IMG/VR virus record: IMGVR_UViG_3300050821_007656
Coordinates: 1-23,181 of that record
Reading direction: 5' to 3' (one strand)
DNA from: a virus
Length of the DNA: 23,181 nt
The stretch's first letter is position 1, and each line of letters opens with the position of its first letter. Both the position numbers and the translations under genes were made by a program. A model generated the notes under the pieces. That model was not told the DNA's origin, did not search any database, and worked only from the letters and a program-made list of their open reading frames with translations. Below, in pieces: positions 5,140 through 16,243 of the stretch.

Positions 5140-7461
5140 ATGTCGAAAGTACGAAAACACGAAAGCATGAATGACGAAGCTCGAAAGAACGACGAAGGTG
5201 CGTTCAACTTCGTCATTCGTCATTCGAGCTTCGTCATTCTTCTGTGTACTGGGTACTGTGTACTCGGCACTCCGTGCGCCCGCGCCCAGCCCAACGGTCT
5301 CTTCCCGGAGACGATCATCGCCGGGCCGGGCCTGAGCTCCACGGCCAGCGGCCGCACGCTGACTTTGAGTGTGACTGCCGCCGGCGGCACGACCTTCACG
5401 CCGGGATTGAACCTTTCGCTCGCCGCCGGCACGCTCAATGCCGGCAGCGCCACGCTCGGCAGCGCTGCATATACCAACAGCGGATCCTATGAGCCAGCCT
5501 TCACGCCCGGCAACGGGCTCTTGCTGGCGGCAGGCAACTTGTCGGCGCTGCTGTCGACCACTGGCGGCTTGTCTTTCACCGGCGGATCAATCGGCATCAC
5601 CGGAGGGACTGCCGGACTGCTTGCGGGATATGTGCCGTATAGCGGCGCGACTAGCAGCGTTTCTCTGGGATCGTATAGCATCCTGGCTAGTGGAATATCG
5701 CCCACCAATAACGGGATTACTCCCGTGACTTCGTGGCTATCTACCGGCGGAAGCGCTAGTCAGTTTCAGCCTCAATACAAGATCGTCAATGCCATTTCCT
5801 TTGCCGGAAGCGGGCAGACAATGCTTTCTTTCGACGCGCTCCATAATTGGATCGGCATCAACCAAACAGCCCCTGTGTCCACGCTTGATCTTGGCAGCAA
5901 TCCGACGATCACCGGCAGCGGCTCGACCGCGGGCTACTGCAGTATCGGAGTGACGAGCAGTGGCGGAATCGTGCTCAAGTCCTCCGACACGTCAACGAGT
6001 TCCCCGGCATTGCGGTTGGTGAATCTAGCCAACAGCAGCGTGTGGACCGTGGACTATCTAGGCAATACGGTGTTCAGCGGCAACATCAGCGGCAGCGGGG
6101 CATTGAATATCGTCGGGGCGGCGACGTTCGCGGGAGGTACGGGAATTGATTCGTCAGGCGACTTGACGGTAGGCGGACAACTCATTGCGGGTAATGATGG
6201 CGTTCAGGCATCAAGCGGGAACATTCTCAACCTCTACTCTGGCGACGGAAATTCCGGATCATCCATCACAATTGCTGACCAGACGCCTGATGGCGGAAAC
6301 ATCACGCTTGCAACTGGGGCTTTGGGCTCAATAGTTATTCAAGGAAATCTGGATTTTCCCGATCTCACTGCATCCAGTCTGTTGGCTACAGGAACGTCAA
6401 ATATCGCGTCATCGGTAATCCTTGGCAGGAATGCAACGCTTACCGGCATCACGACAACGTCCGGAGGCACGCTGAACGTCGGTACGGCCACCTTTGGATC
6501 GGCGGCCTACACGGCGAGTAACGCCTACGTTGCTGGTCTTGGTAGCTTGTCGCAAGAGAATTCCAACGCCTTTAGCATCAGCGGCACGGGCACCCTCACA
6601 CCATCCAGCAGCACGACCTACGCCCTGTTGCAATTCATGGGCTCGGGCAGCAACTGGACGACGCTGGGCAGCAACCCGGCGGGCAACATGGTGATTACGC
6701 CGAGTGCGAACGCGGCGAACAACGTGCTGAGCATTACGAATGCCGGCGGAACAAACACGCTTGGGCTTAGCACTCAATCTGGAGGAGGAGGTCAGATTGT
6801 GATGTCGAATACGAACGGCAGCACAATTACGTTTAATATAGATACAGCAGATGCTAACGGCAACATCTCTATGTCGAGTGGTCAGTTGTATATACATCCG
6901 GTGGTTGATTTCTATAATAATATCGCCCCATTTAATGATAATGCAGTAACTTGCGGAGCCGCCGGACAACGTTGGTCAGGATTCGACGCAACAACTGGGA
7001 CCATCGGAAAAGCCTCGACAACTACTCCTGGCTGGGTAATAAAACTCGCATCAAGTGCCGACACGGCAGATGCCTTTCAGGTGCTCGCGTCGAACAACTT
7101 ATCGGCCGGCGCGACGAAAGTCTTCGGCATCAGCGGCGGATCGGCGGCAGGCGGCGTTGCGGGGGCGATCAATAGTGCTATCGGGCAGACGACGCTTACG
7201 CCGACAGGAGCCGGAGCGGGAGGCACTATCGTTTGCTCTATGCCGTTCCAGGGAGCAAGCTACAAGCAGGCCATTCTGTTTTTCAGTGGCTACAGCTTCG
7301 GGGCGACCGGTGGAGACACCTATACGTTCCCAACTGCGTTCACGCAGACGCCTTTCGTGTCAGCCAGCAACGTCACGGTGACGGCCACACTTACCACTAC
7401 GAGCTATGCGGTCACGGTGGCTTCCGGTCAAACAGGATGGGTCACAATTGAGGGTTACTAA
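5140..7461 (+). CDS. Tail-fibre-like protein with signal-peptide-like N-terminus
   Basis: A 773-residue Gly/Ser/Thr/Asn-rich protein, the longest in the left half. The N-terminus is charged, then hydrophobic (SSFVILLCTGYCVLGTPCARA), like a signal peptide. This part is encoded by a palindromic element (5169-5239). The body has fibre-type beta repeats: GTLNAGSATLGSAAYT near residue 98 recurs as GTLNVGTATFGSAAYT near residue 444. Toward the end, GAAGQRWSGFDATTGTIG and a terminal domain ending GWVTIEGY resemble tail-fibre C-termini. Probable role is host-surface binding. ATG 5167 is an alternative start. Confidence 0.65.
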   Translation: MSKVRKHESMNDEARKNDEGAFNFVIRHSSFVILLCTGYCVLGTPCARAQPNGLFPETIIAGPGLSSTASGRTLTLSVTAAGGTTFTPGLNLSLAAGTLNAGSATLGSAAYTNSGSYEPAFTPGNGLLLAAGNLSALLSTTGGLSFTGGSIGITGGTAGLLAGYVPYSGATSSVSLGSYSILASGISPTNNGITPVTSWLSTGGSASQFQPQYKIVNAISFAGSGQTMLSFDALHNWIGINQTAPVSTLDLGSNPTITGSGSTAGYCSIGVTSSGGIVLKSSDTSTSSPALRLVNLANSSVWTVDYLGNTVFSGNISGSGALNIVGAATFAGGTGIDSSGDLTVGGQLIAGNDGVQASSGNILNLYSGDGNSGSSITIADQTPDGGNITLATGALGSIVIQGNLDFPDLTASSLLATGTSNIASSVILGRNATLTGITTTSGGTLNVGTATFGSAAYTASNAYVAGLGSLSQENSNAFSISGTGTLTPSSSTTYALLQFMGSGSNWTTLGSNPAGNMVITPSANAANNVLSITNAGGTNTLGLSTQSGGGGQIVMSNTNGSTITFNIDTADANGNISMSSGQLYIHPVVDFYNNIAPFNDNAVTCGAAGQRWSGFDATTGTIGKASTTTPGWVIKLASSADTADAFQVLASNNLSAGATKVFGISGGSAAGGVAGAINSAIGQTTLTPTGAGAGGTIVCSMPFQGASYKQAILFFSGYSFGATGGDTYTFPTAFTQTPFVSASNVTVTATLTTTSYAVTVASGQTGWVTIEGY
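5169..5239 (+). repeat. Palindromic element inside the fibre gene
   Basis: A 17-base segment at 5169-5185 (starting GAATGACGAAGC) is the perfect reverse complement of 5223-5239. Shorter GACGAAG and CTTCGTC copies lie between them. It is followed by a GTACT-rich stretch at about 5245-5263. The element covers the codons for the start of the signal-like peptide. It resembles intergenic palindromes of bacterial genomes that have become translated. Confidence 0.6.
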
Positions 7462-13331: not shown

Positions 13332-13588
13332 CCTCCGACGAACTAATCCACGCCATCTCCCAACTCCTTGCCGGCCATCCCACGCCGGAACCAGACGCGG
13401 CCACGGTTATCCAGGCCCGCAAGAATGCGCGGTACATTATCGACCGGCCACGGGACTTCCCGGACGTGCCCGGCATGATCGCGGAGCAGCGCCGGGCCAC
13501 GTTGTTCAGCGTGGCCTGCATGCTGGAATTGGAGCGGCTGCACCCGGTGGCAAAGCCGGTCCCGTTTGCGGAAGGAGTCTTGCGGTAA
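13328..13588 (+). CDS. Hypothetical helical protein
   Basis: An 86-residue protein starting at the ATG that overlaps the previous stop. Helical and hydrophilic (TSDELIHAISQLLAG, later RRATLFSVACMLELERL). The TAA overlaps the next ATG by one base (TAATG). No family recognised. Confidence 0.55.
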   Translation: MTSDELIHAISQLLAGHPTPEPDAATVIQARKNARYIIDRPRDFPDVPGMIAEQRRATLFSVACMLELERLHPVAKPVPFAEGVLR

Positions 13589-13824
13589 TGCACTCGAAAA
13601 CTTTTGAGTTTCCGATCTACAAAGACGAGCGATTGACCGGCGGCCGGTTCCCGGTTATCGATCCAATTGTCGCCAACGCCGTGAACACGCTGGCCGACAA
13701 GGCGGCGGAATTAGTCCGATTGATCGAGTCGTGCTGCCCGCCCTGTGATGACCGAACCGAGGCCGCTAAGAAGGTCGAGGAAGCCGTGATGTGGACCATG
13801 AACGGGATGAGGAAGAACGGATGA
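13588..13824 (+). CDS. Acb2-like cyclic-nucleotide sponge
   Basis: A 78-residue protein. Its C-terminal half (IESCCPPCDDRTEAAKKVE, then EAVMWTMNGMRKNG; residues 46-78) follows the helical-hairpin pattern of Acb2: an acidic helix, a CPP turn, then a helix with a K/LEEA-MW signature. Acb2 proteins form hexamers that sequester CBASS cyclic nucleotides and some Thoeris signals. The usual Arg-Glu after the turn is replaced by DDR here, so ligand range may differ. Small size fits Acb2. The call is from the pattern alone and less certain than the Tad1-like gene. Confidence 0.6.
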   Translation: MHSKTFEFPIYKDERLTGGRFPVIDPIVANAVNTLADKAAELVRLIESCCPPCDDRTEAAKKVEEAVMWTMNGMRKNG

Positions 13825-14192
13825 TTCCGCCGCCAGGCCGGTTGCCATTTTCGTTTGCCGCAACCACCAACTCGAATTCGACGGCGTGGGCCAATGGCAA
13901 GTCGTTCGCCGAATCCATCGTCGAGATTCAATCGATTGAGAAGGACTTCCGCGAGAAAACTCGGCAAGCGGTTGAAGACTTTCGGCGCGCGGCAAAGCCG
14001 TGCGCGCTCTGTGGGCACGTGATGGAGATTGACGACGCCGGGCAAACGGTCACGGTTTGCGTTTGCATGTACGCAGCTATCGCAAGCTGCATTCCGAATG
14101 AGAATCCGAAGAATCCGGATGTTTTTGGAGTCATCGGATGCCTCGATATTCGCTTGGCCCAACCGCTTGACACGCCCGGCGGTTCCGTCTAG
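13821..14192 (+). CDS. Hypothetical protein with Cys knuckles
   Basis: A 123-residue protein starting at the ATG that overlaps the previous stop. A helix (FREKTRQAVEDFRRAAK) leads into a Cys-rich segment with CALCGHVM and CVCMYAAIASC that may bind a metal. Its last codons contain the -35 hexamer of the promoter for the next cassette. Function unknown. Confidence 0.55.
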   Translation: MIPPPGRLPFSFAATTNSNSTAWANGKSFAESIVEIQSIEKDFREKTRQAVEDFRRAAKPCALCGHVMEIDDAGQTVTVCVCMYAAIASCIPNENPKNPDVFGVIGCLDIRLAQPLDTPGGSV

Positions 14193-14195
14193 AAT
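14167..14195 (+). promoter_or_regulatory. Consensus-like promoter of the CRISPR cassette
   Basis: TTGACA (14167-14172), 17 bases, then TAGAAT (14190-14195): 11 of 12 hexamer positions match sigma-70 consensus. It lies in the end of the upstream gene. Transcription should begin near 14202, just before the first GAGACTTGGAC box. It can drive the Cas12/TnpB-like gene and the array as one transcript. Confidence 0.65.
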
Positions 14196-14204
14196 GCCCG
14201 TGTT

Positions 14205-14311
14205 GAGACTTGGACGTTTTCCGAACAAACCGCGGCCGGTTGCTTCGCGCTTCTGACCTGTCCAAGTCTCACGCGCTGGTGATCGGCCGCGGGAAATAGC
14301 GAGACTTGGAC
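14205..14311 (+). promoter_or_regulatory. Three 11-bp boxes, direct-inverted-direct
   Basis: GAGACTTGGAC occurs at 14205-14215 and 14301-14311, and its exact reverse complement GTCCAAGTCTC at 14260-14270. In RNA the middle copy can pair with either outer copy but not both. The third copy ends three bases before the ATG at 14315, so one pairing would lie next to the start codon. As DNA, the first box sits at the predicted transcription start and could be an operator. Confidence 0.7.
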
Positions 14312-14314
14312 AAA

Positions 14315-15571
14315 ATGCGCTGCGGATGCGGAAAGACCGTCGAGCCGAAGGCCGGCAAAAAAGAGCGCCTGCCGGCCGGCTGGCATCGTCAGCCGAAAAC
14401 GGAACTGCCGCTTTGCCCAAAATGCTGGGGCGAGCGGTACATTCTGCGGGCCGTGACGATCCCCGTCGCCGGCCCCGTGTCGTGCGAATGGCCGGAGTTT
14501 AGGCAGGCGCTCAAGACGGCATGGCAGCGGGCGACGCGATTGACAAATCTTGCCGTGCAATCGTTGCTCAAGCGGGACGTTGTGCGAACCGCAAAGATGA
14601 CGAAGCTGCCGCCGATGCCGGCGGGGAATCTGTACCAGGATTGCATGGTAGAGGACTATGCCGGTTGGAGCCAGTCAGCAGCCGCGATCCTCCGGCAGAC
14701 GGAAGCCAAGTACCGGGCCAAGCGCTACGAGCGGATTTGGCTAGGGCAGACGACGTTGCCGAATGCCCGTTATCCGCAGCCCTACCCGATTCACAACGCA
14801 AACTGGACGGCCGCGTGGATGGAAAACGGCGAGCGTGTGCCGCACGTCACGGTCACGCTTCCGGAAGTCGGGCGCATCACGCTGCGACTTCGCGGCGGAC
14901 AAGATTTCCGCCGGCAACTTGCGGCCTTCGCTCAAATCGTTAGCGGTACGGCAATTCAGGGCGAGTTGTCGCTATACGAGCAACGCGTCAACAGCGGCGA
15001 CCATCGCAACGGCACCACGGAACGGGACGGCGGTGGGGGGAAGTTTCAAACGCGGGTGATGTGCAAGATGGTGGCCTGGCTTCCGCGGCAGGAAGCCAAA
15101 GAGCTGGATGGAACGCTCTTCGTACGCACGGATGCCGATGCGTTGCTCATTGCCCTGGACGCCAAAGATGAACGCGTCTGGATTCACAATGCCGATCACC
15201 TGCCGCGGTGGGTGGCGGAACATCGGCGGCGGTTGAATCGGTGGGCGGATGACCAGAAGGCCGAGCAACGGCCGGTAGCCTCGTTCACAGGCCGGCGGGA
15301 AAGGGCGTGCTTGAAGCATCGCAATCGAATGGACTCGGCCACGCACGAGGCCGCCGCCCAGTTGGTGAATTTCGCGAGTCGTCGCAAGTTCGCCGTGATT
15401 CGCTACGACGATTCGTGCAAGAGTTTCGTGAGGGAATTTCCCTGGGATCGGCTGAAACGATTGATTATCGAAAAGTCCGATGCTGCCGGAATCGAGGTAG
15501 AAGTTGTCGCGACCGGCTCGGTGCCGGAAAAAGTACCAGACCCGCTCGCAGAAACGCAAGGAGTGAATTGA
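14315..15571 (+). CDS. Compact Cas12/TnpB-like RuvC-fold effector (type V-U-like)
   Basis: A 418-residue protein from ATG 14315; an in-frame TTG at 14306 would add three residues. An N-terminal zinc knuckle (CGC at 3-5, CPKC at 34-37) precedes the central region. The C-terminal third resembles TnpB/Cas12: a RuvC-I-like strand LFVRTDADALL (Asp273), an Arg-rich bridge-like helix region, THEAAAQLVNFA, FAVIRYDD where RuvC-II Glu is expected (Asp365), then FPWDRL (375-380) and GIEVEVV. It stops there, without the usual zinc ribbon and RuvC-III Asp. RNA-guided DNA binding without cleavage is my inference, supported by the adjacent array. A degenerate transposon TnpB is the main alternative; no TnpA or element ends are visible. 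Confidence 0.6.
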   Translation: MRCGCGKTVEPKAGKKERLPAGWHRQPKTELPLCPKCWGERYILRAVTIPVAGPVSCEWPEFRQALKTAWQRATRLTNLAVQSLLKRDVVRTAKMTKLPPMPAGNLYQDCMVEDYAGWSQSAAAILRQTEAKYRAKRYERIWLGQTTLPNARYPQPYPIHNANWTAAWMENGERVPHVTVTLPEVGRITLRLRGGQDFRRQLAAFAQIVSGTAIQGELSLYEQRVNSGDHRNGTTERDGGGGKFQTRVMCKMVAWLPRQEAKELDGTLFVRTDADALLIALDAKDERVWIHNADHLPRWVAEHRRRLNRWADDQKAEQRPVASFTGRRERACLKHRNRMDSATHEAAAQLVNFASRRKFAVIRYDDSCKSFVREFPWDRLKRLIIEKSDAAGIEVEVVATGSVPEKVPDPLAETQGVN

Positions 15572-15572
15572 T

Positions 15573-15710
15573 ATGGAGCTACGAACATTGGCCACCGCAA
15601 GGCCAAGTCGGGCAAGCCTGGAATCCGAGCGATTCCGGGGACCGCTCGAAAACGCCGTCACAAAAAGAGCAGGGATAAAGCCTTACGGCCTCGGCCCCTG
15701 CAATGCCTGA
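15573..15710 (+). CDS. Possible 45-aa leader ORF ending in repeat 1
   Basis: ATG 15573 follows an AAGGAG ribosome-binding site (15558-15563) with 9-base spacing. The frame (MELRTLATARPSRASLESER...) ends at the TGA inside the first CRISPR repeat. Third codon positions are less GC-rich than in neighbouring genes, which argues against coding. The stretch may instead be the array leader or part of a guide-RNA transcript. Confidence 0.25.
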   Translation: MELRTLATARPSRASLESERFRGPLENAVTKRAGIKPYGLGPCNA

Positions 15711-16028
15711 GGAACGCGTCAGACATTGCGGGTTTACGTCCACCGGCTCCAAGGTTCCGTCATCGACCCCTGCAATGCCTGAGGAACGCGTCAGACATTG
15801 CGGGACCGCAAGAAGCCGCCGTTCAAGTCGGCGGCGCTGGTCACCTGCAATGCCTGAGGAACGCGTCAGACATTGCGGGATCAAGACCTAGTTTCCCCGG
15901 AACGCTGGATCCTGGTGCCTGCAATGCCTGAGGAACGCGTCAGACATTGCGGGATTGCAAGAAGCCGCCGTTCAAGTCGGCGGCGCTGGTCACCTGCAAT
16001 GCCTGAGGAACGCGTCAGACATTGCGGG
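15697..16028 (+). CRISPR. CRISPR-type array: five 36-bp repeats, four spacers
   Basis: Five identical 36-base repeats lie at 15697-15732, 15769-15804, 15844-15879, 15918-15953 and 15993-16028. Spacers are 36, 39, 38 and 39 bases. The repeat arms CCTGCAATGCCTGA and TCAGACATTGCGGG pair around an 8-base loop with two mismatches, so each repeat can fold into a strong hairpin. Flanking bases differ at each copy, which fixes the 36-base boundary. Spacers 1 and 3 are unrelated. Spacers 2 and 4 differ at only two bases. The array lies 125 bases after the Cas12/TnpB-like gene. No adaptation genes are in the window. Orientation is presumed + from the promoter at 14167. Confidence 0.85.
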
Positions 16029-16105: not shown

Positions 16106-16171
16106 CTGATTTAATACCCGCATACAGGCGACGCGCCCGGCTGATCCCCGAGCGTGAGCCCAGCGCAATTT

Positions 16172-16208
16172 AAAAGCCAACCGGGGCCGGTTCCTTGGTT
16201 GGCTTTTT
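16172..16208 (+). terminator. Intrinsic terminator before the head genes
   Basis: AAAAGCCAACC (16172-16182) is the exact reverse complement of GGTTGGCTTTT (16197-16207). The T-run on one side and A-run on the other would let it work in both directions. It separates the CRISPR-like cassette from the head operon, which would then need its own promoter between 16208 and 16244 or read-through. No convincing promoter was seen there. Confidence 0.75.
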
Positions 16209-16243
16209 CGTTGCGCTCGCCTGTTCAATCCAAAGCGGGAATC

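What the first reader, a model, noticed from the sequence alone, without database searches (positions are those of the whole stretch)
14196..14314. Competing hairpins or operators from three 11-bp boxes before the effector gene
GAGACTTGGAC, its reverse complement, and GAGACTTGGAC again fill the leader between the predicted transcription start (~14202) and the ATG at 14315. The middle box can pair with either outer one, and the last box abuts the start codon. This could be an RNA switch, an autoregulatory operator set or a guide-like RNA that lets the effector repress its own gene.
Basis: partly seen in the sequence, partly recalled or inferred. Interest (0 to 1): 0.7.

Follow-up and report, generated by a model that had tools for sequence, protein, structure and literature searches.

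The report
Three-box mRNA leader of phage Cas12f-like gene
A phage gene for a small, apparently cutting-dead CRISPR protein has its own strong promoter followed by a 113-base leader whose three matching 11-base boxes and one long hairpin could fold in competing ways near the start codon, probably to control expression, but the arrangement is found in this one phage only and is untested.

Summary
GAGACTTGGAC lies at 14205-14215 (+), 14260-14270 (-) and 14301-14311 (+). No such triple arose in 300 simulated windows. A near-consensus promoter (TTGACA-17-TAGAAT, 11 of 12) sits just upstream.

Predicted folding changes as the RNA grows: box1:box2, then the hairpin, then box2:box3 beside the start codon. 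The last two are almost equal in energy.

The gene downstream encodes a Cas12f-fold protein that lacks the RuvC-III end. A covarying tracr-like RNA, a 5-repeat CRISPR array and a terminator follow. Ten relatives share the protein and RNA, but none has the boxes or a comparable promoter. Covariation therefore cannot be tested.

Guide-like autorepression is not supported: no spacer matches the promoter region in seven loci beyond chance, and the leader does not resemble the tracr-like RNA. I favour a leader RNA that controls translation (0.45). DNA operators are the main rival (0.3). This is a new variant of a known kind, of moderate interest. A side lead, arrays of 7-9-base micro-repeats in three relatives, may be more novel.

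The parts
14167..14195 (+). Promoter TTGACA-17-TAGAAT; predicted start about 14202
   Evidence: 11/12 consensus; no relative has better than 8/12 upstream of its effector
14194..14256 (+). Possible 20-aa upstream ORF (MPVLRLGRFPNKPRPVASRF), starting 1 nt after the stop of the upstream ORF; its ATG lies before the predicted start site, so only read-through transcripts could use it
   Evidence: Sequence; translation not shown
14205..14215 (+). Box 1 GAGACTTGGAC
   Evidence: Exact match
14260..14270 (-). Box 2, reverse complement of boxes 1 and 3, in the loop of the long hairpin
   Evidence: Exact match; fold
14301..14311 (+). Box 3 GAGACTTGGAC, 3 nt before the ATG
   Evidence: Exact match
14230..14292 (+). 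Long hairpin: 15-pair stem 14230-14244/14278-14292 plus GCGC/GCGC 14247-14250/14273-14276
   Evidence: -39.4 kcal/mol, z -5.46, 0 of 200 shuffles; other strand -32.3, z -3.5
14315..15571 (+). Effector: Cas12f-fold protein (418 aa) without the RuvC-III end
   Evidence: PADLOC Cas12f 2.2e-06; AsCas12f Z 21 ending at its residue 367-368
15582..15700 (+). tracr-like structured RNA
   Evidence: Covariation in 17 of 20 pairs across 11 loci; covariance model hit 108 bits (window is a training sequence)
15697..16028 (+). CRISPR array: 5 repeats of 36 nt (CCTGCAATGCCTGAGGAACGCGTCAGACATTGCGGG); spacers 2 and 4 nearly identical
   Evidence: Repeat positions
16172..16208 (+). Likely terminator closing the cassette (15-pair stem, T run)
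   Evidence: Fold of 16161-16215, -30.9 kcal/mol

Best explanation
The leader is a cis-acting RNA control element for a phage-borne cassette of a nuclease-dead Cas12f-like protein. Transcription starts near 14202. Box1:box2 pairs first; the long hairpin then takes over and leaves box 3 and the start codon open (on). Alternatively box 2 pairs with box 3 and covers the ribosome entry site (off). Which state wins is set by something that binds box 1 or the 5' arm of the hairpin, such as a protein, an RNA or a ribosome. Shown: the boxes, the promoter match, the predicted helices and their energies. Inferred: that the RNA folds this way in cells, that it controls translation, and what triggers it.
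For: The boxes exceed chance. The hairpin around box 2 has z -5.5, and its best register is lower than any window on a 24-nt grid across the 23 kb, CRISPR repeats included. The + strand folds 7 kcal/mol better than the - strand because of G-U pairs, which points to RNA. Folding with growing length gives box1:box2 at 14272-14284, the hairpin from 14290, and box2:box3 at about 14338-14374. Hairpin and box2:box3 states lie at -47.9 and -46.9 kcal/mol for 14202-14330. With the non-box sequence shuffled, boxes pair in 98.7% of trials; in the real 14202-14330 leader they mostly do not (1% of shuffles this low), so the hairpin is a real competitor. Box 3 lies where a ribosome would bind.
Against: No homologous leader exists in the data, so there is no covariation test. 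Over the longer stretches 14202-14330 and 14196-14344 the z-score is only -1.3 and -1.2. The hairpin window was chosen after seeing the fold. The three boxes match without a single G-U pair, which RNA pairing alone does not demand. No Rfam match. No trigger is known.
Confidence: 0.45

Rival explanations
1. The boxes are DNA operators. A phage or host repressor binds the copy at about +4 to +14 and, by looping, the two inside the leader, shutting off the cassette promoter.
For: Box 1 lies just downstream of a near-consensus promoter, and only the member with its own promoter has boxes. The copies are identical at all 11 positions with no G-U pairs.
Against: The boxes are asymmetric and 41-55 bp apart in mixed orientation, unusual for paired half-sites. 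No inverted box pair occurs in 2.9 million viral contigs at the spacings tried. No recognised DNA-binding regulator was found among the window ORFs scanned. It does not explain the long hairpin.
Confidence: 0.3
2. The leader is mainly an insulating or stabilising 5' structure of a phage 'moron' cassette; the box identity comes from recent local duplication and inversion and has little regulatory role.
For: The cassette has its own promoter and terminator, sits between head genes, and shares almost only the effector with other loci. The boxes are absent elsewhere.
Against: Three perfect copies placed exactly at the start site, in the loop and at the start codon are hard to see as incidental.
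Confidence: 0.18
3. RNA-guided autorepression: the Cas12f-like protein, loaded with a short guide of about 11 nt, binds the boxes and represses its own promoter, as tracr-L does with Cas9.
For: The effector appears nuclease-dead; tracr-L uses 11 matching nucleotides at the cas promoter (PMC11417352); box length is similar.
Against: No spacer matches the region upstream of its own effector beyond chance in seven loci. The leader is not tracr-like. No other exact box copy exists in the window. The bases beside the boxes are not shared, so no common flanking motif is evident.
Confidence: 0.05

Closest known systems
Cas12f (type V-F) effectors, e.g. AsCas12f
   Same: Same fold over residues 1-368 (Z 21), similar size, CRISPR array, tracr-like RNA next to the array
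   Different: The part after about residue 368, with the zinc finger and (from my own knowledge) the RuvC-III aspartate, is missing; no member carries it
Natural dCas12f (PDB 9n9c, 9n9m; by memory, sigma-factor-coupled RNA-guided transcription)
   Same: Cas12f-like; the compared structure also ends at residue 365 (Z 20.6)
   Different: No conserved neighbour gene, such as a sigma factor, beside the effector in these loci
TldR, phage-encoded nuclease-dead TnpB repressors (PMC13418256)
   Same: Phage-borne, nuclease-dead, RNA-guided by inference
   Different: TldR derives from TnpB and has no CRISPR array
tracr-L autorepression of Cas9 (PMC11417352)
   Same: About 11 nt near a cas promoter
   Different: No matching guide found here
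Bacterial attenuator or riboswitch-type leaders
   Same: Predicted mutually exclusive helices, one beside the start codon
   Different: No Rfam family, no known ligand, no relatives for covariation

Membership tests
Cas12f (type V-F) | Cas12f fold | tested here: met
   Foldseek 1.4e-17 and VIA Z 21 to AsCas12f; PADLOC Cas12f 2.2e-06
Cas12f (type V-F) | Intact RuvC D-E-D active site | tested here: not met
   All sequences end before the RuvC-III region. RuvC-I position varies (D, A, S, T), read by eye. RuvC-II E aligns with D in most
Cas12f (type V-F) | tracrRNA beside a CRISPR array | tested here: met
   Structured RNA with compensatory changes in 17 of 20 pairs between effector and array in 11 loci; function as tracrRNA inferred
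Cas12f (type V-F) | Works as a dimer on target DNA | not testable with these tools
   Needs purified protein
Cas12m (type V-M) | Closest effector similarity to Cas12m | tested here: inconclusive
   Cas12m chains appear with Z about 10-11, well below Cas12f at 21
TldR | TnpB-derived repressor without CRISPR array | tested here: not met
   A 5-repeat array follows the gene
tracr-L / short-guide autorepression | Guide with a seed match at the effector promoter | tested here: not met
   28 spacers in 7 loci give no match better than shuffles
Attenuator or riboswitch leader | Mutually exclusive helices, one covering the ribosome site | tested here: met
   Predicted only
Attenuator or riboswitch leader | Covariation across homologues | not testable with these tools
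   No homologous leader found
Repressor operator set | Bound by a DNA-binding protein | not testable with these tools
   Needs a binding assay; no regulator gene recognised in the window ORFs scanned

The most novel reading that the evidence does not exclude
A three-state RNA switch, with one loop sequence that can pair either with the 5' end of the message or with the ribosome site, sets the level of a natural nuclease-dead CRISPR effector in a phage, possibly distinguishing transcripts from the cassette's own promoter from late read-through transcripts by translation of the 20-aa upstream ORF.
Probability: 0.15. Interest if true: 0.65.

Novelty: new variant of a known kind. Interest (0 to 1): 0.42.

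Why it matters
Little is known about how phages control CRISPR effectors that bind but probably do not cut DNA. If the leader is a switch, it gives a compact, directly testable example of RNA-level control of such a system, and box mutants with compensatory changes would settle it.

Tried and rejected
Guide-like leader: covariance model of the tracr-like RNA, filters off, gave no hit in 14202-14314. Spacer self-targeting of the promoter: none beyond chance. A shared CCAAGTC between boxes and the tracr-like RNA is 7 nt, at chance level. Box pairs in viral contigs: inverted pairs none; direct pairs gave 19 hits, of which the seven examined are tandem 'ETWT' codon repeats in a protein and unrelated. 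Phage records: no protein or DNA match. Rfam: none. Micro-spacers of three relatives against their own contigs: no excess of matches. Terminator reading of the long hairpin: no T run follows it.

Full report
Check of the observation. The three boxes are exact and at the stated places, with 12-bp pairing possible for box1:box2 and box2:box3. Whole-window simulations gave no triple of an 11-mer within 130 bp in 300 runs; the real window has two, here and at 5169. The promoter match 14167-14195 is 11 of 12.

Between the outer boxes lies a long hairpin, 14230-14244 paired with 14278-14292, plus an inner GCGC/GCGC, with box 2 in its loop. It folds at -39.4 kcal/mol against a shuffled mean of -23.6 (z -5.46, none of 200). 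A grid of 963 windows across the 23 kb had a lowest z of -5.0, with CRISPR repeats near -4.4; the leader in its best register scored -5.2 in that script. This comparison favours the leader, because its register was chosen and the others were on a grid. The minus strand folds less well (-32.3, z -3.5), because several pairs are G-U on the plus strand.

How it may fold. With growing length from 14202, box1:box2 forms by 14272 (-28.1), the hairpin replaces it by 14290, and box2:box3 with a clamp to the early coding region is the minimum in stretches ending at 14326, 14338 and 14344. For 14202-14330 the hairpin state is -47.9, the box2:box3 state -46.9 and the box1:box2 state -40.9. Pairing probabilities for box2:box3 depend on the 3' end: 0 at 14314, 0.15 at 14332, 0.92 at 14344, 0.42 at 14404. 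If the 5' part up to 14256 is left out, as if covered, box2:box3 is the minimum. When only the non-box sequence is shuffled, boxes pair in 98.7% of cases, so the hairpin is what keeps them apart.

The gene behind it. The ORF 14315-15571 matches PADLOC Cas12f (2.2e-06) and Cas12u3, and its AlphaFold model (pLDDT 75.6) matches AsCas12f (Foldseek 1.4e-17; Z about 21 over 326-334 residues). The alignment ends at AsCas12f residue 367-368. The relatives all end at the same place, so the RuvC-III part is absent from the family. That the protein does not cut is inferred, not shown.

The rest of the cassette. Between effector and array lies a structured RNA found in all 11 loci, with compensatory changes in 17 of 20 predicted pairs. 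The array has five 36-nt repeats. A 15-pair stem with a T run at 16172-16208 closes the unit. Only the effector protein is shared with the other loci, apart from the terminase of one, so the cassette seems to move on its own.

Relatives. Ten further distinct loci were found (L010 and L011 look identical over the effector). None has a box array upstream of the effector. Of the nine records searched whole, the eight viral ones hold no exact box; the bacterial genome G007 holds one, alone. None of the relatives has a promoter match above 8 of 12 there. L006 has direct copies of TCGGGCGCGT near a TATACT, a different arrangement. Lack of conservation therefore says little about function.

Tests of the guide idea. 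None of 28 spacers in seven loci matches the region upstream of its own effector beyond shuffles. The tracr model finds nothing in the leader. For comparison, tracr-L represses the cas promoter through 11 matching nucleotides (PMC11417352), which makes the idea reasonable but leaves it without support here.

Judgement. RNA control of translation is the best fit because it explains both the boxes and the hairpin; DNA operators explain the boxes and the promoter but not the hairpin. The weakness is that everything rests on one sequence and on folding predictions.

Noticed in passing
L004 7600-8150, L007 7340-8800, L012 7367-8680: Downstream of the effector the CRISPR array becomes a long run of 7-9 nt micro-repeats (GCTTCGG, TCGTTCGG, GCCTCGG), in L004 and L007 matching the 3' end of the full repeat, separated by mostly 10-25 nt unique stretches, about 25-60 units. 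Micro-spacers do not match the own contig beyond chance.
   Followed up: partly
window 15582-15700 and 10 relatives: Conserved tracr-like RNA with strong covariation, not in Rfam.
   Followed up: partly
window 13588-13824 and 1357-1740: Two small proteins match the Acb2/Tad1 hairpin domain (5e-07, above cut-off; 6.2e-06, just below), a family of phage counter-defence proteins.
   Followed up: no
L008 and L009 (one Acidobacteria MAG): Two different members of the effector family in one genome bin.
   Followed up: no
L007 11417-11508: Second, weaker match to the tracr-like RNA model, 22.8 bits.
   Followed up: no
window 14377-14447: Start of the effector coding region has an unusually stable predicted fold (z -5.0).
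   Followed up: no
window 5169-5240: Second box triple in the window: short inverted copies around TTCGTCATTCGTCATTCG.
   Followed up: no
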